NCBI RefSeq assembly: GCF_000013045.1
Contig: NC_007677.1
Coordinates: forward strand, 930,001-994,000
Direction: 5' to 3'
DNA: 64,000 bases
Source of the DNA: Salinibacter ruber DSM 13855
GTDB taxonomy: Bacteria > Bacteroidota > Rhodothermia > Rhodothermales > Salinibacteraceae
Both the position numbers and the translations under genes were made by a program. Below the pieces are notes generated by a model. It saw only the letters and a list, made by a program, of their open reading frames with translations, searched no databases and was not told the origin of the DNA. This document shows, in pieces, positions 4,764-38,271 of this stretch; the first letter of the stretch is position 1, and each line of letters begins with the position of its first letter.

Positions 4764-4866
4764 TGCGCATTGCGTATCTCGTATTGCGTACGTGTCGGTG
4801 TGCAAACAGCTCTGTTCACGCAATACGCAACACGCAGGCAATGCGCAACACGCAATACGAGCGGGC
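4764..4866. repeat. Intergenic heptamer-type repeat cluster with perfect 12-bp inverted repeat
   Basis: Between the convergent ends of hutH and the epimerase gene, ATTGCGT-like words run on the left and ACGCAAT-like words on the right. CTCGTATTGCGT (4778-4789) is exactly complementary to 4850-4861, and TGCGCATTG (4764-4772) to 4839-4847. The two pairings are mutually exclusive as simple nested hairpins. A folded transcript from either strand would form a long stem, so it may end or stabilise both mRNAs. Confidence 0.75.
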
Positions 4867-30868: not shown

Positions 30869-31615
30869 TCACACGAGCCGGTCGCGGATCTCGGGGGCGT
30901 AGGAGCGACTCACCCGGACGGTGGTGCCGTCGTCGAGCACGGCCTTGTAGCCGCCCGAGCCGTCGCTGTAGAGGTAGTCGATGGCCGGGAAGGCGAGAAT
31001 GTGGGAGCGATGGACCCGCATAAACCGCGTCGGGGCGAGGCGGTCCTCCAGCGCGCCGATGCCCATCGACGACAGGTAGGTCGTCTCGTCGGTATGGAGC
31101 TTCGAGTAGTCGCCCGCCGCCTCCACCCATCGAATGTCGTCGGGGTCGACGGGGATAATTTTGTCGCCGTGGCGCACGTAGAGCCGCTCCGGCGAGTCGT
31201 CGGTCTCGGCCTTGGCCTCCTGCAGCAGCGTCGCAAGCTGGTCGGCGTAGGCGTCGTCGTCCCGGTCGTGACGCTCCAGCGCCCGCTCCACGGCGGTCTG
31301 GAAGCGGGCCCTCGTGTACGGCTTCAGAAGATAGTCGACCGCCCCCGCCTCGAAGGCCTCAATCGCGTACTCGTCGTAGGCGGTGGAGAAGATGATGTCC
31401 GGCAGCGTGTCGATCCGCTCCAGCACGTCGAAGCCGTCGAGGCCGGGCATCTGCACGTCGAGGAAGACGAGGTCAGGGGCCGTCTCGTTGATGGCCTCAA
31501 TGGCCGCCCGTCCCGTGCCGCACTCGCCGGTCACCTCGATGCGGCCGATCTCCTCCAGGTACTCCTGGATCAGGCTGCGGGCGGGCGGTTCGTCGTCGAC
31601 AATGAGGGCACGCAC
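30869..31615 (-). CDS. LytTR-type response regulator
   Basis: 248 residues. N-terminal receiver with Asp8/Asp9 and phospho-acceptor Asp53 (LVFLDVQMPGLDG), Thr/Ala in FSTAYDEYA and the conserved Lys in LLKPYTRARF. The C-terminal LytTR DNA-binding domain follows (VRHGDKIIPV...IRWVEAAGDYSKLHT...FMRVHRSHI). Output of the two-component pair with the LytS-like kinase upstream (stop-to-start gap 42 bases). As the last gene of a six-gene minus-strand series, it probably controls the same cluster. Confidence 0.92.
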   Translation of the reverse strand: MRALIVDDEPPARSLIQEYLEEIGRIEVTGECGTGRAAIEAINETAPDLVFLDVQMPGLDGFDVLERIDTLPDIIFSTAYDEYAIEAFEAGAVDYLLKPYTRARFQTAVERALERHDRDDDAYADQLATLLQEAKAETDDSPERLYVRHGDKIIPVDPDDIRWVEAAGDYSKLHTDETTYLSSMGIGALEDRLAPTRFMRVHRSHILAFPAIDYLYSDGSGGYKAVLDDGTTVRVSRSYAPEIRDRLV

Positions 31616-31657
31616 AGGATTGGGGCGGGATTGGGAGGAGAGCAGCGGTGCGGGGCG

Positions 31658-32797
31658 TTAGGAATCGGCGGTGCCGTTCCGAGGGATGGAAAACCAGACC
31701 TTAAAGCCGGTCGGGTCGTTCCGGGCGGTGTGGAGGGCGGCGTCGGGGCCGTAGGTGCGTTCCAGTCGTGTGCTCGTGGTGGCGAGGCCGGTGCCGTCCG
31801 TCGAGCCCGAGAGCGGGTCGTCGGCGTCGGGGCCCACGCCGGTATCTTCCACGTGCACGTCGAGTGTGTCGTGCTCGGCGGTCACCGCCACGGTGACCGA
31901 GCCGCCGTCCTCGCTCGGGGCGATGCCGTGGCGGAGGGCGTTCTCCACGAGCGGCTGCAGCACCATTGGCGGCACCGGCGTGTCCAGCGCGTCGGTGTCG
32001 GCGTCGACGTCCATCCGGGCCCGCAGCCGATCCGAAAAGCGGTGCCGCTCCAGGTCGAGGTACCGACGAGTAAAGGCAATTTCTTCCCGCAGCGGAACGA
32101 ACTCCCGATCCGGGCCCTCCAGGGCGTATCGCATCATGTCGGACAGCTTCGCGATCATCTCCCGGGCCCGCTCCGGGTCCTGACGGAGCGTCGCGCTAAT
32201 CGAATTCAGGGTGTTGAACAGAAAGTGCGGATTGACCTGGGCCTTGAGGGCGGCGAGCTGTTGCTCCCGGGCCATGGCCAAGAACTCGGTGGCCTGCCGC
32301 TCCTTCTGCCGGAGGCGCTGGACGTTCCGGACCAGGTGGTAGAGGGCAAACTGGATGATGTAGACCGTGAGGTTGGCGAACAGGATCCACTGGTACTGCG
32401 CCCCGATCTCCGCGGCGATGCTGGGGGCAAACACGGCCCGAACGACGAACAGGTACGACTCGAGCCCGCCCCAGGCGTAGAGGGGGCCGAGACACAGGTG
32501 CGCGCCGAGGGTCCACCCCCAGTGCGAGCGATCCATCTCGCGCACCGCGACCCACCAGACCGGCACGCTGTAGAGGCCGAGCACGAGAACGAAGATAAGC
32601 TGCCCGGCGAGGAGGCCGACGAAGGGGGCGTTGGGCTCCTGCTGGGCGATAAAAAACGCGTAGAGAAACGCGTAGAGCGTCCAGCCCGCCACGGCCAGCC
32701 CAACGCCTTTGGCCGTGATCGTCGGTTTCGGTGGGGCCTGGGTCTGGATGTCGTCCAGGGACGCGTCGAGGTCGGTTGAGGAGGGCACCGACGACAT
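31658..32797 (-). CDS. LytS-like sensor histidine kinase
   Basis: 379 residues. Four hydrophobic helices between residues 30 and 156 form the membrane sensor, with no large extracellular domain. The His_kinase domain follows with the phospho-acceptor His191 in QVNPHFLFNTLNS and an ATPase part (LVENALRHGI, DTGVGPD, GTGLATTSTRLERTYG). Membership in the LytS/YehU group fits its LytTR partner directly downstream. The signal is probably sensed inside the membrane, as in kinases paired with ABC exporters. Confidence 0.92.
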   Translation of the reverse strand: MSSVPSSTDLDASLDDIQTQAPPKPTITAKGVGLAVAGWTLYAFLYAFFIAQQEPNAPFVGLLAGQLIFVLVLGLYSVPVWWVAVREMDRSHWGWTLGAHLCLGPLYAWGGLESYLFVVRAVFAPSIAAEIGAQYQWILFANLTVYIIQFALYHLVRNVQRLRQKERQATEFLAMAREQQLAALKAQVNPHFLFNTLNSISATLRQDPERAREMIAKLSDMMRYALEGPDREFVPLREEIAFTRRYLDLERHRFSDRLRARMDVDADTDALDTPVPPMVLQPLVENALRHGIAPSEDGGSVTVAVTAEHDTLDVHVEDTGVGPDADDPLSGSTDGTGLATTSTRLERTYGPDAALHTARNDPTGFKVWFSIPRNGTADS

Positions 32798-32840
32798 GTC
32801 TGCTCGGTTCGTTGCGCAGGAGTCGGTTTGCCGGGGCGGG

Positions 32841-33578
32841 TTACGACCACCGGAAGGCCCACGCCGCCACGACGGCGCTCACGACGCCCGTGGCTGCAAG
32901 GACGAGCGCCGCCGTTCCGTTCCACTGGCCGTGCAGCCAGGCGTCCTGCAGGAGGCGGGTGACGTGGGTAAGCGGCAGGGCGAGGCTCGCGGTCGTCAGC
33001 CAGTCGGGAAAGAGAAACTGCGGAATGGCGGCGCCCGAGAGGAACAGCATGGGAAAGAAGAGCGCCATCCCGACCGACTGGGCCGCGCGGGCCGTGGGCA
33101 TCAGGGCGCCGAGCAGGAAGCCGAGGCTCAGAAAGGCGATCCCGGCGAACAGCAGCGCGCCGAGGGCCAGCAGGGAAGACGGGGGCAGGGGCACGGCGTA
33201 CGCGATGGGGGCGGCGACGAGAAGCAGGGCCGTGCTCACGAGGAGCATCACGAGGTTTACGGCGGCCTGTGTGCCCAGCACGATTGTGGGGCGGAGCGGG
33301 GTCGCGCGAAACCGGCGCAGGATGCCCTGGTCGCGCTGCGTCGCCAGCGTGATGGGCAGGCTCAGGAGACCGAGGGAGCCGATCGTGAGGGCCACGTAGC
33401 CGGGCACAGCGCGCGTGGTGTAGCCGACGTCGCCGGGCGCAGAGGCCGGGCCGTTGCCGAAGATGGCACCGAAGGCGAAGAGGAGAAGGAGGGGAAAGCC
33501 CAGTGTGAAGAACGTGGCGGACGGCTCCCGCAGGAAGAGCTTCGACTCGGTCCAGGTGAGCGTGAGGAAGGCCTTCAT
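32841..33578 (-). CDS. ABC-2-type transporter permease
   Basis: 245 residues, six membrane helices with the ABC-2 layout: an N-terminal amphipathic lead (TLTWTESKLFLREPSATFF), TM1, then GSLGLLSLPITLATQRDQGILRRFRATPL, the typical cytosolic coupling segment, and four further helices. It forms the export path with the adjacent ATPase. ATG 33578 is chosen; the longer frame runs into the repeat cluster upstream. Sits 43 bases before the kinase gene. Confidence 0.9.
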   Translation of the reverse strand: MKAFLTLTWTESKLFLREPSATFFTLGFPLLLLFAFGAIFGNGPASAPGDVGYTTRAVPGYVALTIGSLGLLSLPITLATQRDQGILRRFRATPLRPTIVLGTQAAVNLVMLLVSTALLLVAAPIAYAVPLPPSSLLALGALLFAGIAFLSLGFLLGALMPTARAAQSVGMALFFPMLFLSGAAIPQFLFPDWLTTASLALPLTHVTRLLQDAWLHGQWNGTAALVLAATGVVSAVVAAWAFRWS

Positions 33579-33661
33579 CGGTCGGACGTGGCTTGGGCGG
33601 GGATGCTGAGCAAGGGAAAGGGGGCTGCGTCCAGCCTGACTGGGGGCATGAGTTGCTGCGT

Positions 33662-33703
33662 CACGAGTCATGAGTCACGAGTCATGGGGCACGAGTCATG
33701 AGG
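33662..33703. repeat. Six tandem heptamers overlapping the ATPase stop codon
   Basis: Exact 7-bp units: CACGAGT, CATGAGT, CACGAGT, CATGGGG, CACGAGT and CATGAGG. The ATPase stop codon (TGA at 33698-33696) is supplied by the fifth/sixth unit. It separates ATPase and permease genes inside the putative operon. Confidence 0.8.
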
Positions 33704-34664
33704 GCGCTTTGCTGGACTGTGGTTCTGCATTCGTGACGTGAGAAGACGAAGCGGGATCGTGGGACTCATCGGTAAGGGCGAGGAACACATCCTCCAGGGT
33801 AGCGCGCTCGGCGTGCAGGTCGTTTGGCGTGACGCCTGCGTTGGCGAGGCGGTGCACGACGGTCGTGAGGAGGTCCTCCCCGCCTCGCGTCTGCACGTGA
33901 CCGTCCACGATCGCGACATCCTGTATGCCGTCCGCCGTGCGCAGGGGACTAGGGTCAAAATCGGGCGGCGCGTCGAACCAGACCCGATACGAAGCGTCGA
34001 GCCGATCGATGAGGGCCTGAGGCGTATCGAGGGCCACACACTGCCCGTCGTCCATCATGGCGACCCGGTCGCAGAGCGCCTGGGCCTCGTCCATGAAGTG
34101 CGTGACGAGAAGGACGGTGGTGCCGGACGCCCGGACCTCGCGGAGCAGCTCCTGCGTGCCGCGACGGGCCTCCGGGTCGAGCCCCGTCGAGATCTCGTCG
34201 AGCACCACGAGGTCGGGATCGTGCACCAGCGCGAGGGCCACGAAGAGCCGTTGCTTCTGGCCGCCGGAGAGGGCGCCGAACGACGCATTCCGCTTGTCCG
34301 CCAGGCCCCACCGGTCGAGGAGCGCGTCGCGGTCGGTCGTCTCGGGATAAAAGGAGGCGAACAGGTCGAGGGCCTCGCGGACCGTGATGCGGTCGGGCAG
34401 GGCGGCCGCCTGCAACTGGGCGCCAACCCGACGGTAGAACGGGTCGCGTGCCGCCTGCTGCGGGTCCATGCCGAGCACGCGCACAGTGCCTTCGTCTGGC
34501 TTCCGGAGCCCAAGGGCACACTCGACGGCGGTCGTCTTGCCCGCGCCGTTGGGACCGATGAGCCCGAAGATCTCGCCCGTCTCTACCTCCAGAGACAGGT
34601 CGTCCACGGCGACCGTGGAGCCGTATGCTTTTCGAAGGCCATCGAGGGCGAGAGCAGTGTCCAT
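33696..34664 (-). CDS. ABC transporter ATP-binding protein (DrrA/CcmA-like)
   Basis: 322 residues. Walker A GPNGAGKTT (37-45), signature LSGGQKQR (132-139), Walker B LVVLDE (152-157) and the switch His in LLVTHFMDEAQ are all intact. The C-terminal ~90 residues are the extra domain common in DrrA-type exporters of drugs, lipids or peptides. Pairs with the ABC-2 permease downstream, and the stop codon lies within the heptamer repeat. TPR lipoprotein gene is 39 bases upstream. Confidence 0.93.
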   Translation of the reverse strand: MDTALALDGLRKAYGSTVAVDDLSLEVETGEIFGLIGPNGAGKTTAVECALGLRKPDEGTVRVLGMDPQQAARDPFYRRVGAQLQAAALPDRITVREALDLFASFYPETTDRDALLDRWGLADKRNASFGALSGGQKQRLFVALALVHDPDLVVLDEISTGLDPEARRGTQELLREVRASGTTVLLVTHFMDEAQALCDRVAMMDDGQCVALDTPQALIDRLDASYRVWFDAPPDFDPSPLRTADGIQDVAIVDGHVQTRGGEDLLTTVVHRLANAGVTPNDLHAERATLEDVFLALTDESHDPASSSHVTNAEPQSSKAPS

Positions 34665-34703
34665 GGTGGGGATAAGGCGAGACCGGAAGGGAGAGACGAG
34701 AGG

Positions 34704-35540
34704 CTACCCGGCTTGCTGTTCAAGCCGGGGTAGGAGGACGGATCGCACCCATCCGTAGTCGGGATTGAGGTCGAGGGCCGCCTCGAAGGCCGTGCGGGCC
34801 GGGTCGTACCGCTCGGCCTCCATGTGGGCGACGCCGACCCAGGCGTGCGCCTCGGCGTGGCCCCAACCGGGCATCAGCGGGTCGTCGGGCGAGCCCTGCT
34901 CCGCGAGCCGCGCGGCCTTCTCGAACTTCGTCAGGGCCTTCTCTTTGTCCCCGCCAAACATGCCGGGCGTGTAGAAGTCCGACGTGCCGTCGATGATCCA
35001 CACCCGCGGGTTGTTGGGCCCGTGCTCCTTCGCCCGTTTCATGGCCTCGTTGGCCTTTGGGCCCAGCGACATGCCCTGCATCGGGTTCATGCCCATCATT
35101 TGCCCGTAGTACCCCGACAACAGAGCCCAGGCGTCCGCCATCGTTCCGTTGATCTCCGTGGCGCGCTTGAGGTGGCCGATGGCGTCTTCGATCACGCGCC
35201 CGCGCCGGGCCTCGTCCTCTTCGGGGAGCCGGTTCGACATGCGGTAGTCGGCGAGGGCGGCGTAGTAGTGGGCCAGCGCCGCGCGGTCGCCCCCGGTGGC
35301 CTGCTTGGCCCAGGCGCGGGCCTGCTTCAAGGAGTCGAGGGATCCCTCGTCGGTGGCCTCCCGAATCTGGGTTTTGACCTGCCGGAGAAGCGAGTCGGCC
35401 GCTGCACTTTCGAGGGCGGACGACGCCGATGAGGCAGGGGCCATCGGCGTGCTCGACCCGCAGGCCACGAGTCCGACCAGAAGAACGCCGCCGAGGAGGA
35501 AAGCGAATGTCTTTCGAGGGAGCGTCGGGGTCGAGAGCAT
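34704..35540 (-). CDS. TPR-containing lipoprotein
   Basis: 278 residues. Signal peptide with lipobox LVGLVACG (Cys27), a Ser/Ala linker, then tetratricopeptide-like helices: AIGHLKRATEINGTMADAWALLSGYYGQ, and near the end AHAWVGVAHMEAERYDPARTAFEAALDLNPDY. Met/Gly-rich GQMMGMNPMQGMSLG lies between. It probably sits on the periplasmic face of a membrane as a scaffold. Between the TonB receptor (87 bases upstream) and the ABC ATPase (39 bases downstream), which suggests a role in the same uptake/export process. Confidence 0.85.
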   Translation of the reverse strand: MLSTPTLPRKTFAFLLGGVLLVGLVACGSSTPMAPASSASSALESAAADSLLRQVKTQIREATDEGSLDSLKQARAWAKQATGGDRAALAHYYAALADYRMSNRLPEEDEARRGRVIEDAIGHLKRATEINGTMADAWALLSGYYGQMMGMNPMQGMSLGPKANEAMKRAKEHGPNNPRVWIIDGTSDFYTPGMFGGDKEKALTKFEKAARLAEQGSPDDPLMPGWGHAEAHAWVGVAHMEAERYDPARTAFEAALDLNPDYGWVRSVLLPRLEQQAG

Positions 35541-35627
35541 GGGGCGTTGGAGGATGAGGGGAAAGAGCACGTTGATGCGTTGCGGTTGGCGACCGCGGGG
35601 GCATGCATGGGGGCAACAGGACCCGTC

Positions 35628-37838
35628 TCAGAGCGTGAGCGTAAGGCCGAAGTAGACCGACCGGCGGAAGTCCGTCCGCCGGTACCGGCGGGTCGAATAG
35701 TCGGGCGAGTAGGTCACGTCGACGGCGTTGGCCCGGTCGAGGACGTTGTTGAGCGCCGCGTAGACGACCACGTTCTGCTGGCGGTTGAAGGGCCAGAAGT
35801 AGCTCACCTGCAGGTCGAGGCGGTGGTAGGCCGGAAGCCGCTCGCCGCCCACGGGCCCGTCGACCGGCAGGAGGGCGCCGGACTCCAGCCGCTCGGTGCC
35901 CACGACGGGCGTGAAGGGCCGGCCGGTGACGTAGCTGTAGGTGCCGCCGACCCGGAACTGGTCGATCACGCGCACCTTCCCAACCGCCGTGATCTGATGC
36001 GTCAGGTCGTAGGGGGCCGGCCCGTCGTCCAACTTCACGTCCGTCCCCCGGTCGCGGGGCTGGGTGCGGTGGGAGCGGAGGAGGCTGTAGGAGGCCCATC
36101 CGTTGACGCGCGTGCCGAGGAACGATCCGTACTTGGCGAACAGGTCGATGCCCCGTGCGACGCCCGTGCCGTCGTTGGCGTAGCGCGAGGACCCGGTGCG
36201 GACGACCAGGTCGCGGTACGGCTTGTGATAGGCCTCCGCGCGGAGCAACAGGTGTTCCCGCTCGTGGCGCAGGCCGAGCACGACGTGCTGGGCGCGTTGG
36301 GCGCCGAGCGTGTTTTTGCCGACGTGCTCGCCGTAGGTGCTGAGCTCCGGAAACTGGTGGTAGAGGCCCCAGGCGGCCCGCAGCTGCGTGTTCGGCGCAA
36401 ACGACCAGGCGAGCCCCACCCGCGGATCGACGACCGGACGGCCCGCCCGGCTGTGGACATCGGTGCGCAGCCCGGCCCGCGCGACGACCGACGAGAGCAG
36501 GCTCGATTCGACCTCGACGTACCCCCCGGCGCGTGTGGCCCGCACGGATTCGTCGACCGATCGGGTGGGGGCATCGGGCGCCACCACGTCCGGCTGTGTG
36601 GGAACCGTGCCGTCGAATCGGTAGTGCCGACGCTCCACCGTGCCGCCGGTGCGAACGGTCCAGTCCCCGCCCCCGCGCGTAGCGTCGACGCGTAGCTTGG
36701 CGGCCCGGTCGGCGGGCGACAGGTCGAGGGCGCCCAGCGTCTTTTGCGACGTATACGCGTTCCAGGAGGCGCTCGACTCCACGGTCCACCCCTTCGCCTG
36801 GGCCGTCCACTGCAGGTTGTAGAGCTGATTCGTCGTCCGGTCCCGGTAGACGCCGGTGTAGGTGCCTTCGGTCGTCTCCACGCCGATGCGGTTGCGGCGG
36901 GCAAAGGCAAGGAGCTTCAACTGCCCGGTGGGGCCGTAGTCCCAGGTCAGGCCCAGGGTGCCGTCCATGCCCTGCGGCACGGTGGCGTAGTCCCCGCGCT
37001 GGCCGTTGACGCGGAAGAGCACCCCGGTGAATGACCGGTTGCCGGAGAGCCGGAGGCCGAACTCGTCCCCCACGAGCGGCTGGTCGAGGGAGACCGACGC
37101 GGCGGCGAGCCCGAGGTTTACGTACCGGCTGGATTCCTCCGGGCGATCCTTCGATTCCATCGCGAGGACGCCCGAGAGCGCGTTGCCGTACTGTGCCGAG
37201 AAACCGCCCGTAGCAAAGGTGGTGCCGCCGACGAGGAAGGGGCGCACAGCACCGAACGAGCCCCCCGCCGGGGACTCGTAGCGGTACGGATGGTAGACCG
37301 TCGCCTGGTCGAGCAGGGTCTTCGTCTCGGTCACGTCCCCGCCGCGCACGAACAGGCCGGCTCCGTCCCCCGGCGCGGCCACGCCTGGAAACGACTGCAG
37401 GGCGCGGAACAGATCGCCGGCGGCGCCCGGGGTCGTCACGGCTTCGGTCGAGCCCAACGTTGCCTCGGAGGGCGAGCCGGTCGAGAACGTCTCGCCGGTG
37501 ACGACCGCCTCGCCGAGCTCGATGCTCTCGGCCCGAAGCGTGAGCCGCACGGTGCTCGTGTCGCCAGCGCGGAGGCGGAGGGACTGTTCGACGGGGGGGT
37601 AGCCGACGGCCGAGGCCCGCAGGACGACCGACCCGGTGCGCGTCGTTTCGAAGCGGAACCGGCCGTCTTCTCCGGCCGCGGTGCCGACGGCCGCCCCGTC
37701 AATCTGCACGTTCGCGTAGGGGACCGGCGCGCCCTGCGCGTCGCGCACCTGGCCTTCCACGACGGCGGGCTGGGCCGGGGCCACGCCGGGAATGAGCGCG
37801 AGCACGAGGACAAGGCCTCCAACGAAGCGGCGACACAT
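35628..37838 (-). CDS. TonB-dependent outer-membrane receptor
   Basis: 736 residues. Signal peptide (cleaved near VAPAQ), a CarboxypepD_reg-like beta-sandwich (VEGQVRDAQGAPVPYANVQI), a plug domain (GDLFRALQSFPGV...LFVRGGDVTETKTLLDQATVY) and a C-terminal 22-strand barrel ending in an aromatic-rich strand (SVYFGLTLTL). No SusD-like gene follows, so it is not a glycan-uptake pair; length fits siderophore, metal or peptide receptors. First gene of the six-gene minus-strand series with TPR lipoprotein, ABC exporter and LytS/LytTR signalling. Confidence 0.92.
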   Translation of the reverse strand: MCRRFVGGLVLVLALIPGVAPAQPAVVEGQVRDAQGAPVPYANVQIDGAAVGTAAGEDGRFRFETTRTGSVVLRASAVGYPPVEQSLRLRAGDTSTVRLTLRAESIELGEAVVTGETFSTGSPSEATLGSTEAVTTPGAAGDLFRALQSFPGVAAPGDGAGLFVRGGDVTETKTLLDQATVYHPYRYESPAGGSFGAVRPFLVGGTTFATGGFSAQYGNALSGVLAMESKDRPEESSRYVNLGLAAASVSLDQPLVGDEFGLRLSGNRSFTGVLFRVNGQRGDYATVPQGMDGTLGLTWDYGPTGQLKLLAFARRNRIGVETTEGTYTGVYRDRTTNQLYNLQWTAQAKGWTVESSASWNAYTSQKTLGALDLSPADRAAKLRVDATRGGGDWTVRTGGTVERRHYRFDGTVPTQPDVVAPDAPTRSVDESVRATRAGGYVEVESSLLSSVVARAGLRTDVHSRAGRPVVDPRVGLAWSFAPNTQLRAAWGLYHQFPELSTYGEHVGKNTLGAQRAQHVVLGLRHEREHLLLRAEAYHKPYRDLVVRTGSSRYANDGTGVARGIDLFAKYGSFLGTRVNGWASYSLLRSHRTQPRDRGTDVKLDDGPAPYDLTHQITAVGKVRVIDQFRVGGTYSYVTGRPFTPVVGTERLESGALLPVDGPVGGERLPAYHRLDLQVSYFWPFNRQQNVVVYAALNNVLDRANAVDVTYSPDYSTRRYRRTDFRRSVYFGLTLTL

Positions 37839-37998
37839 GGCGAGGATGGGGGGCGAGAATCAGATCGTCCGCAATGGCATCCTCGCATATTCGCCGTCTG
37901 GGCCTCGCGTTTAGGGGATGTCGACGAGTCGCGTCTGCCCTCGCCGGACCGTGCGTCGCGCCGGTGAGTGAGCGGGGCTGGGTCCCGAGACGCGCCAT

Positions 37999-38061: not shown

Positions 38062-38271
38062 TCAGGCGACGACCTCCGCCTGCTCCTCGGGGACCGGCAT
38101 GGCGTCGAACCGCACGCCCTGGTCCCCCGGATACGGTTCGTGGTGGTCGTGCTGGTTGCGCCAGATCTCCTCCGGGATGCCCTCCGGAAAGGCGTCGCAG
38201 ACCGCCTCGTCGTCGCGGTCCCGGTCGAGATGCGTACAAGACTTGCACATTGATTCGATGTCGTGGGCCAT
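38062..38271 (-). CDS. Small Cys-containing protein
   Basis: 69 residues, soluble and acidic. [11 protein letters not shown] begins with CxxC, a third Cys follows in [14 protein letters not shown], then [15 protein letters not shown]. This order (CxxC, C.AFP.GIP, H..P..GD.G) recurs in small hypothetical proteins of many bacteria as I recall, and suggests a zinc or metal-binding knuckle. It ends with a strong terminator and is divergent from the next Cys-containing gene, with a palindrome between them. Confidence 0.8.

What the first reader, a model, noticed from the sequence alone, without database searches (positions are those of the whole stretch)
30869..37838. Six-gene series linking a TonB receptor, TPR lipoprotein, ABC exporter and LytS/LytTR pair
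All six genes are on the minus strand with gaps of 42, 43, 117, 39 and 87 bases. The receptor lacks a SusD partner, so this is not a glycan locus. A membrane-embedded LytS-like kinase without a periplasmic sensor domain next to an ABC-2 exporter recalls antimicrobial-peptide sensing/export modules, but here with an outer-membrane receptor and a periplasmic TPR lipoprotein, which could form a trans-envelope path for a peptide or signal. I know of no characterised system with this exact order.
Basis: partly seen in the sequence, partly recalled or inferred. Interest (0 to 1): 0.65.

Follow-up and report, generated by a model that had tools for sequence, protein, structure and literature searches.

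The report
HusA-like receptor operon with own switch
Six neighbouring genes in a salt-loving bacterium form an operon that pairs an outer-membrane receptor with a relative of the haem-carrying protein HusA and carries its own two-component switch; receptor, carrier and switch recur in related bacteria and beyond, whereas the exporter inside the operon comes and goes.

Summary
The six genes, their strand and all five gaps are as stated. The exact order recurs in 4 further genomes. The conserved core, however, is receptor, TPR protein, LytS kinase and LytTR regulator; the ABC pair is a cassette gained or lost at least three times on the kinase tree. The TPR protein is a relative of HusA, the porphyrin/haem carrier of Porphyromonas gingivalis: profile E 1.1e-16, sole match of a HusA fragment in this genome, best PDB fold (Z 20.3). 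The receptor belongs to a distinct TonB-receptor subfamily found beside HusA-like proteins. A tandem direct repeat of LytTR type lies in front of the receptor; its strict pattern occurs 15 times in 27 genomes of the family, 13 times in this locus. So the regulator very probably controls its own operon. Two of the four HusA groove residues needed for haem binding are lost here; porphyrin is a lead for the ligand, not a result. Best reading: a self-regulated HusAB-like uptake operon with a swappable accessory slot, here an exporter. New variant of a known kind.

The parts
35628..37838 (-). TonB-dependent receptor (736 aa; signal peptide, carboxypeptidase-regulatory-like domain, plug, barrel), HusB-like by its place beside the HusA-like gene
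   Evidence: Pfam CarboxypepD_reg and Plug; best of 29 matches of the family profile in its genome (some are pieces of one receptor), 1014 against 254 bits for the next; AlphaFold2 model of middling quality, mean pLDDT 70.3, plug poor; nearest PDB entries BtuB and other TonB receptors
34704..35540 (-). HusA-like TPR lipoprotein (278 aa)
   Evidence: Profile match to HusA 6bqs/6crl, E 1.1e-16 and 6.3e-16; a HusA fragment finds only this protein in the genome, E 1.6e-11; AF2 model pLDDT 85.8, HusA first by Foldseek and by VIA-align, Z 20.3
33696..34664 (-). ABC exporter ATPase, DrrA-like (322 aa); cassette gene
   Evidence: ABC_tran; DrrA model 205.7 bits, below its 312.45 cut-off; Walker A/B and LSGGQ
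32841..33578 (-). ABC-2 permease (245 aa, six hydrophobic segments); cassette gene
   Evidence: ABC2_membrane; hydropathy
31658..32797 (-). LytS-type histidine kinase, four hydrophobic segments (379 aa)
   Evidence: His_kinase PF06580 and HATPase_c; His191 in NPHFLFNTLN
30869..31615 (-). LytTR response regulator (248 aa)
   Evidence: Response_reg and LytTR; Asp53
37908..37946 (-). tandem LytTR-type box in front of the receptor gene: CGGCGA-14-CGTCGA-9-AACG
   Evidence: Pattern in 12 of 17 loci of the family scanned; 15 sites in 27 family genomes, 13 of them in this locus; the only exact site in the own genome
38008..38037 (-). terminator-like hairpin after the small ORF that precedes the operon, followed by TTCTTTTT
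   Evidence: 13 pairs, 9 G-C; the whole scan equals the shuffle expectation

Best explanation
This is a self-regulated HusAB-like uptake operon. Shown by comparison: the receptor and the HusA-like protein are a dedicated pair; the LytS-LytTR pair belongs to them, with a tandem LytTR-type box in front of the receptor gene; the exporter pair is one of several interchangeable accessory modules. Inferred: the receptor takes up a hydrophobic, porphyrin-like ligand with TonB energy and passes it to, or receives it from, the HusA-like protein; the membrane-embedded kinase senses the ligand, its passage or the membrane stress it causes, and phosphorylates the regulator; the regulator binds the box and raises the whole operon; in Salinibacter the ABC-2 exporter expels surplus or harmful ligand (or a modified form), so that uptake and efflux rise together. 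My estimates: operon under its own regulator 0.85; HusAB-like uptake pair 0.75; porphyrin-like ligand 0.3; exporter as safety valve 0.35.
For: HusA relation: profile E 1.1e-16 over HusA chain residues 31-184, single hit in the own genome in the other direction, fold rank 1 by two methods, 195 of 201 residues, rmsd 3.5. Pairing: a receptor of the family lies within 3 kb on the same strand in 87 of 120 stretches that hold the TPR protein; in 7 of 7 genomes searched the receptor beside the TPR protein is the top scorer by a wide margin, including two (G444 674 against 305 bits, G312 735 against 145) whose receptors were not in the profile and whose TPR proteins are 41% and 39% identical to the HusA fragment. 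Switch: of the 87 pairs 42 have the kinase downstream on the same strand (41 with the regulator), 29 a winged-helix gene with a small membrane protein instead, none both, 16 neither. Promoter: direct repeats of period 20 or 21 are enriched before the pair where the kinase is present, 13 of 36 non-redundant loci with z of 2 or more (1.8 on average at other adjacent spacings) against 0 of 19 with the other regulators; 20 and 21 rank first and second of 29 spacings. These are spacings printed for LytTR sites (9-bp repeats separated by 11-13 bp, just upstream of -35; PMC6193735 passages; 10-13 bp, PMC11347149 passages), and two relatives carry CCATTCATCG twice, close to the AlgR box CCGTTCATC (PMC4064291 passages). 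Family scan: 13 of 15 sites lie in this locus, reversed control 0. Exporter: an ATPase gene of this type lies downstream in 17 of 87 pairs; by ORF count 16 of 334 downstream slots against 0 of 669 elsewhere in the same stretches (7 of those 16 loci had served to train the ATPase profile).
Against: Two of the four groove residues that together carry haem binding in HusA are Gly here (L123, W130; the alignment near 130 is uncertain), V124 is Met, Tyr164 is kept. The genome has hemN next door and probably makes its own haem. HusB itself could not be compared with the receptor; in the PDB the receptor finds only generic TonB receptors, BtuB first by fold. 33 of 120 TPR stretches show no such receptor within 3 kb, some at contig ends, some beside quite different genes. 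Period 20/21 repeats also appear in 4 of 14 loci with neither regulator, and period 21 ranks third of 29 in the loci with the other regulators, though none reaches z 2. Kinase loci of the family without a site: G014 and G021, the second locus of G013 (L061/L058), and G008, which has kinase and regulator but no TPR protein or receptor beside them. No expression or binding data.
Confidence: 0.6

Rival explanations
1. Sensing and defence module: the receptor lets an antimicrobial peptide or macrocycle in, the kinase senses it in the membrane, and the accessory gene (ABC-2 exporter, CAAX-type membrane protease, beta-lactamase-like or amidohydrolase enzyme, MFS pump) removes it.
For: Accessory genes of resistance or immunity type occur in the loci: ABC-2 pair, Rce1/CPBP-like protease between TPR protein and kinase (L096, L097, L099), class A beta-lactamase-like gene between ATPase and permease (L048), amidohydrolase between receptor and TPR protein (L045), MFS pump between TPR protein and kinase (L072). 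LytTR systems with ABC transporters and direct-repeat autoregulation are described in streptococci (PMC6193735 passages).
Against: A dedicated receptor would import the poison. In 26 of 51 loci with the kinase downstream no gene lies between TPR protein and kinase. PADLOC finds only generic domain matches. Several accessory genes are not of resistance type (ICMT-type methyltransferase, RibD-like, TMEM175-like).
Confidence: 0.2
2. Shuttle: the exporter sends out a small carrier (metallophore-like) and the receptor and TPR protein bring the loaded carrier back; the kinase monitors its return.
For: Exporter and receptor in one operon; ABC-2 genes of different Pfam types follow the pair with the LytS-LytTR switch in the own family and with the winged-helix regulator in family f26.
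Against: No biosynthesis gene for such a carrier among the six genes or four neighbours scanned; 70 of 87 pairs have no such ATPase downstream.
Confidence: 0.12
3. One reading: a fixed six-part trans-envelope path for a peptide or signal.
For: Exact six-gene order in 5 loci including the own one; TPR proteins often bind peptides (recalled).
Against: Exporter gained or lost at least 3 times on the kinase tree; core without exporter in several families and in KSB1.
Confidence: 0.08

Closest known systems
Hus system of Porphyromonas gingivalis (HusA haemophore-like protein, HusB TonB receptor)
   Same: HusA-related helical protein encoded beside a TonB receptor; same fold (Z 20.3); shared NPR, TP and FGG motifs
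   Different: LytS-LytTR switch and exporter not mentioned for hus in the passages and sections read; haem-groove residues partly lost; lipobox in Salinibacter; HusB, HusC and HusD not compared
Autoregulated LytTR systems (streptococcal LRS; AlgR-type response regulators)
   Same: LytTR domain; tandem direct repeats of period 20-21 in front of the own operon; ABC transporter genes sometimes attached
   Different: Here a kinase-response regulator pair tied to an outer-membrane receptor; LRS use a membrane inhibitor protein instead of a kinase
DrrAB / ABC-2 exporters
   Same: ATPase and ABC-2 permease in tandem
   Different: Below the curated DrrA and DrrB cut-offs; embedded in a receptor operon
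SusCD / RagAB uptake systems
   Same: Receptor with N-terminal carboxypeptidase-regulatory-like domain and a helical lipoprotein partner
   Different: No SusD; receptor far below the SusC/RagA cut-off (42 of 368 bits)

Membership tests
Hus haem/porphyrin uptake system | HusA-type TPR-like carrier protein | tested here: met
   (both directions)
Hus haem/porphyrin uptake system | TonB-dependent receptor encoded next to the carrier | tested here: met
   pairing in 87 of 120 stretches; top receptor in 7 of 7 genomes
Hus haem/porphyrin uptake system | Haem-groove residues L123, V124, W130, Y164 of HusA | tested here: not met
   Gly, Met, Gly, Tyr in the window protein; hence filed as HusAB-like, not as a Hus porphyrin system
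Hus haem/porphyrin uptake system | Receptor orthologous to HusB | not tested
   No HusB sequence at hand; receptors beside proteins about 40% identical to HusA are of the same subfamily
Hus haem/porphyrin uptake system | Binding of porphyrin or haem | not testable with these tools
   Needs purified protein
LytS-LytTR two-component system that controls its own operon | His_kinase and LytTR domains with conserved His and Asp | tested here: met
LytS-LytTR two-component system that controls its own operon | Tandem direct repeats, period 20-22, in front of the own operon | tested here: met
LytS-LytTR two-component system that controls its own operon | Phosphotransfer and DNA binding | not testable with these tools
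   Needs purified proteins
SusCD / RagAB | SusD/RagB partner and SusC/RagA-family receptor | tested here: not met
DrrAB equivalog | Curated DrrA/DrrB score cut-offs | tested here: not met
   205.7 of 312.45 and 52.2 of 223.05 bits
Known anti-phage defence systems | Specific PADLOC model match | tested here: inconclusive
   Matches only for the ATPase (best mad3, 100.9 bits) and the receiver domain, none for the other four proteins

The most novel reading that the evidence does not exclude
HusA is a late, porphyrin-adapted member of an old receptor-bound carrier family spread over Bacteroidota, Gemmatimonadota and KSB1. In most bacteria this receptor-carrier pair brings in a ligand nobody has identified and reports it through a dedicated membrane kinase to a promoter in front of the receptor; in Salinibacter the same signal also raises an exporter, giving a closed import-sense-export loop across both membranes.
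Probability: 0.25. Interest if true: 0.75.

Novelty: new variant of a known kind. Interest (0 to 1): 0.52.

Why it matters
[quoted passage not shown] its authors noted homologues only within Bacteroidetes, free-living species included (PMC6173696, discussion and introduction read). Here it falls into a family with matches in 123 of 392 Bacteroidota genomes (E 1e-12 or better; the weakest may be generic TPR proteins) and in KSB1 and Gemmatimonadota, paired with one receptor subfamily and in 42 of 87 pairs with a dedicated kinase. That turns the question of what these carriers transport into one that can be tested in harmless hosts, with the LytTR box as a ready reporter of the ligand.

Tried and rejected
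Glycan (SusCD) locus: rejected. Anti-phage system: only generic matches. tRNA-Arg called by ARAGORN inside the receptor gene: not supported by Rfam. Sigma-70-type promoter scan: none found, uninformative for this phylum. Receptor substrate from structure: the AF2 model is middling (pLDDT 70.3, plug under 50) and its best PDB hits are generic TonB receptors. 9gbc, the best PDB sequence hit of the receptor, matches only the N-terminal domain and the start of the plug. The automatic best repeat in L039 and L040 fell in the terminator-like hairpin, not in the box; the box there is known from alignment and pattern search. A window-only search of the box with 3 mismatches finds 3 sites where 2.67 are expected, so only the strict pattern is informative. 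In the own genome with up to 2 mismatches 43 sites appear (reversed control 7), one with 0 and one with 1 mismatch.

Corrected on recheck: my ORF picker chose wrong frames in several stretches, so the first neighbour counts (82 pairs of 115; kinase 42, winged helix 18) were low; the report uses the frame-by-frame recount (87 of 120; 42 and 29). Of 124 stretches 4 show no TPR protein (L057, L058, L067, L068); they were fetched for their kinase. The stretches were chosen for TPR or kinase hits, hold contig ends and some near-duplicates, and are no random sample. In the first kinase tree L058 was labelled as lacking the exporter although its contig ends inside a permease gene; that tree needed 5 changes (at least 4). 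Rebuilt without L058 and L057 it needs 4 (at least 3), and 13 of 500 shuffles are as low.

Searches for print (open-access PMC only): HusA with LytTR, 0 papers; TonB-dependent with LytTR, histidine kinase and Salinibacter, 0 papers; HusA with tetratricopeptide, homologs and TonB-dependent, 1 paper (PMC5329018, listing only); TonB-dependent receptor, LytTR, tetratricopeptide, ABC transporter and Bacteroidetes, 1 paper (PMC10710014, listing only).
Full report
What is there. Six genes on the minus strand of window 30869-37838 encode, in order of transcription, a TonB-dependent receptor, a TPR lipoprotein, an ABC ATPase, an ABC-2 permease, a LytS-type kinase and a LytTR regulator. Kinase, regulator and ATPase carry their catalytic residues. 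The operon follows a terminator-like hairpin and ends 31 bases before a convergent Rrf2-type gene.

The TPR protein is a HusA relative. A profile of 16 family members matches the P. gingivalis protein PG_2227 (6bqs, 6crl) at E 1.1e-16, a narrower profile at 6.3e-16. PG2227 is husA (PMC10913741 table passage). In the other direction a 155-residue HusA stretch finds one protein in the S. ruber genome, this one, E 1.6e-11. The AlphaFold2 model (pLDDT 85.8) has HusA as its first PDB match by Foldseek (E 2.4e-6, TM 0.77 on HusA) and by VIA-align (Z 20.3, 195 of 201 residues, rmsd 3.5; next 18.5, a Thermus TPR protein; then PTPIP51 at 18.2, a bacterial sterol transporter at 18.1 and a TPAT protein at 17.7). 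TPR folds resemble one another, so the sequence match weighs more than Z. HusA binds haem and other porphyrins in a groove without iron ligation, in the low micromolar range, and a mutant of L123, V124, W130 and Y164 together binds haemin minimally (PMC6173696). In the ten proteins of the own genus group L123 is always Gly, V124 Met or Leu, W130 Gly, Ala or Ser, Y164 Tyr (6) or Phe (4); in 37 short, HusA-length relatives position 130 is Tyr, Trp or Phe in 22. So the family is shared; the pocket is not fully shared.

The pair with the receptor. Of 124 fetched stretches 120 show the TPR protein, and 87 of these have a receptor of one family within 3 kb on the same strand. The stretches were chosen for TPR or kinase hits and hold contig ends and near-duplicates. 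The receptor family is specific: with its profile the receptor next to the TPR protein is the best match in 7 of 7 genomes, in S. ruber 1014 against 254 bits for the next. The TPR family has matches in 123 of 392 Bacteroidota genomes at 1e-12 (a second, generic TPR protein passes in a few, the own genome among them), in 49 of 244 of the class at 1e-15, and in KSB1 and Gemmatimonadota (neighbourhoods).

The switch. Of the 87 pairs 42 have a LytS-type kinase downstream on the same strand (41 with the regulator), 29 a winged-helix gene (HTH_34 in the one scanned) with a small membrane protein, none both, 16 neither (three of the 16, L163, L164 and L167, have kinase and regulator on the other strand nearby). 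The exclusion suggests alternative regulators of the same pair. To test whether the regulator acts on the pair I looked for direct repeats in the 250 bases before it. Periods 20 and 21 rank first and second of 29 spacings in 36 non-redundant kinase loci; 13 of 36 reach z 2 at either, against 0 of 19 loci with the other regulators (where period 21 still ranks third by mean) and 4 of 14 with neither. Examples: CCATTCATCG twice (L099, L100), ACCGTTCAGG/ACCGTTCGGG (L129), CGACTCGTCG/CGGCTCGTCG (L056). Printed LytTR sites are 9-bp repeats separated by 11 to 13 bp just upstream of -35, and such operons can activate themselves; AlgR boxes read CCGTTCGTC or CCGTTCATC.

In the own family the box is CRNCGA-14-CRTCGA-9-AACG. 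It lies in 12 of 17 loci scanned. Over 27 whole genomes of the family the exact pattern occurs 15 times, the reversed control 0 times. Thirteen sites lie in this locus: in front of the receptor gene, or directly in front of the TPR gene (L044, where no receptor gene is found, L055 and L060); the second site of G018 lies at the start of a receptor reading frame on another contig. The other two (G006 contig 10, G022 contig 248) have none of these genes in the stretch fetched. Kinase loci without a site are those of G014 and G021, the second locus of G013, and G008, whose kinase and regulator stand without TPR protein or receptor; G001, with the TPR protein but no kinase in view, has no site. In S. 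ruber the box at 37908-37946 is the only exact match. The regulon is therefore probably this operon alone.

The cassette. Exact six-gene order: the own genome, L042, L043, L047 and L056, the last from another genus. L040 has the order with inserted transposase-like ORFs, one insertion splitting the permease; L048 has a class A beta-lactamase-like gene between ATPase and permease; L045 and L046 lack the exporter. On a kinase tree of 21 rows the exporter label needs 4 changes, at least 3 forced by well-supported branches; 13 of 500 shuffles are as low, so it is partly clustered (which corrects). Elsewhere the space between TPR protein and kinase holds Rce1-like proteases (all 3 scanned of the 5 such genes seen in family f16), an ICMT-type methyltransferase, a RibD-like gene, an MFS pump, a TMEM175-like protein, unnamed proteins, or nothing (26 of 51 loci with the kinase downstream); an amidohydrolase lies between receptor and TPR protein in L045. 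In family f26 an ABC ATPase and, in the one scanned, a permease of another Pfam type (ABC2_membrane_2) follow the winged-helix regulator, so exporters were probably recruited more than once.

Mechanism. The comparison shows which genes work together and where the regulator probably acts. It does not show the ligand. The simplest reading is uptake of a hydrophobic ligand by receptor and carrier, reported by the kinase, with operon-wide feedback through the box; in Salinibacter an exporter joins the response. The accessory genes make a protective role plausible, and a defence reading is kept as the main rival. Porphyrin as ligand rests on HusA alone and is weakened by the groove.

Verdict. The reading as a fixed six-part path is only partly right. 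It is a new variant of a known kind: a HusAB-like receptor-carrier pair with its own LytS-LytTR switch and a swappable slot. I found no description of it in the searches, which cover open-access papers only.

Noticed in passing
window 33662-33703 (minus strand): Array of six heptamers ACTCRTG (3 mismatches) in the ATPase-permease gap; the triple heptamer occurs at only two places in the genome, and a shorter array lies just before the amidohydrolase gene of L045 at 4774-4794, possibly a mark of cassette exchange.
   Followed up: partly
window 37001-37079 (minus strand): ARAGORN calls a tRNA-Arg(ccg) inside the receptor gene; Rfam does not support it.
   Followed up: yes
L040 5780-6678 and 7415-8313: In genome G010 two copies of a two-ORF transposase-like insertion lie in the operon; one splits the permease gene.
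   Followed up: partly
L133, L146, L150, L151, L152, L157, L180: Second regulator type for the same pair: a small membrane protein without Pfam match (in the one scanned) plus an HTH_34 winged-helix protein, followed by an ABC ATPase gene.
   Followed up: partly
L054, L059, L062: HusA-like genes without receptor or kinase, next to SLOG/lysine-decarboxylase-like genes in families f14 and f15.
   Followed up: no
window 38062-38271 (minus strand): Small ORF of about 69 residues with cysteines and histidines just before the operon; the terminator-like hairpin follows it (read by eye).
   Followed up: no
L041 (G001): Locus with the TPR gene but no kinase or receptor in view, beside a serine beta-lactamase-like gene and an amidohydrolase-like piece.
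   Followed up: partly
L061 and L058 (G013): A second locus in G013, apparently split over two contigs: receptor and TPR protein on one, permease end, kinase and regulator on the other, so perhaps another six-gene locus.
   Followed up: partly
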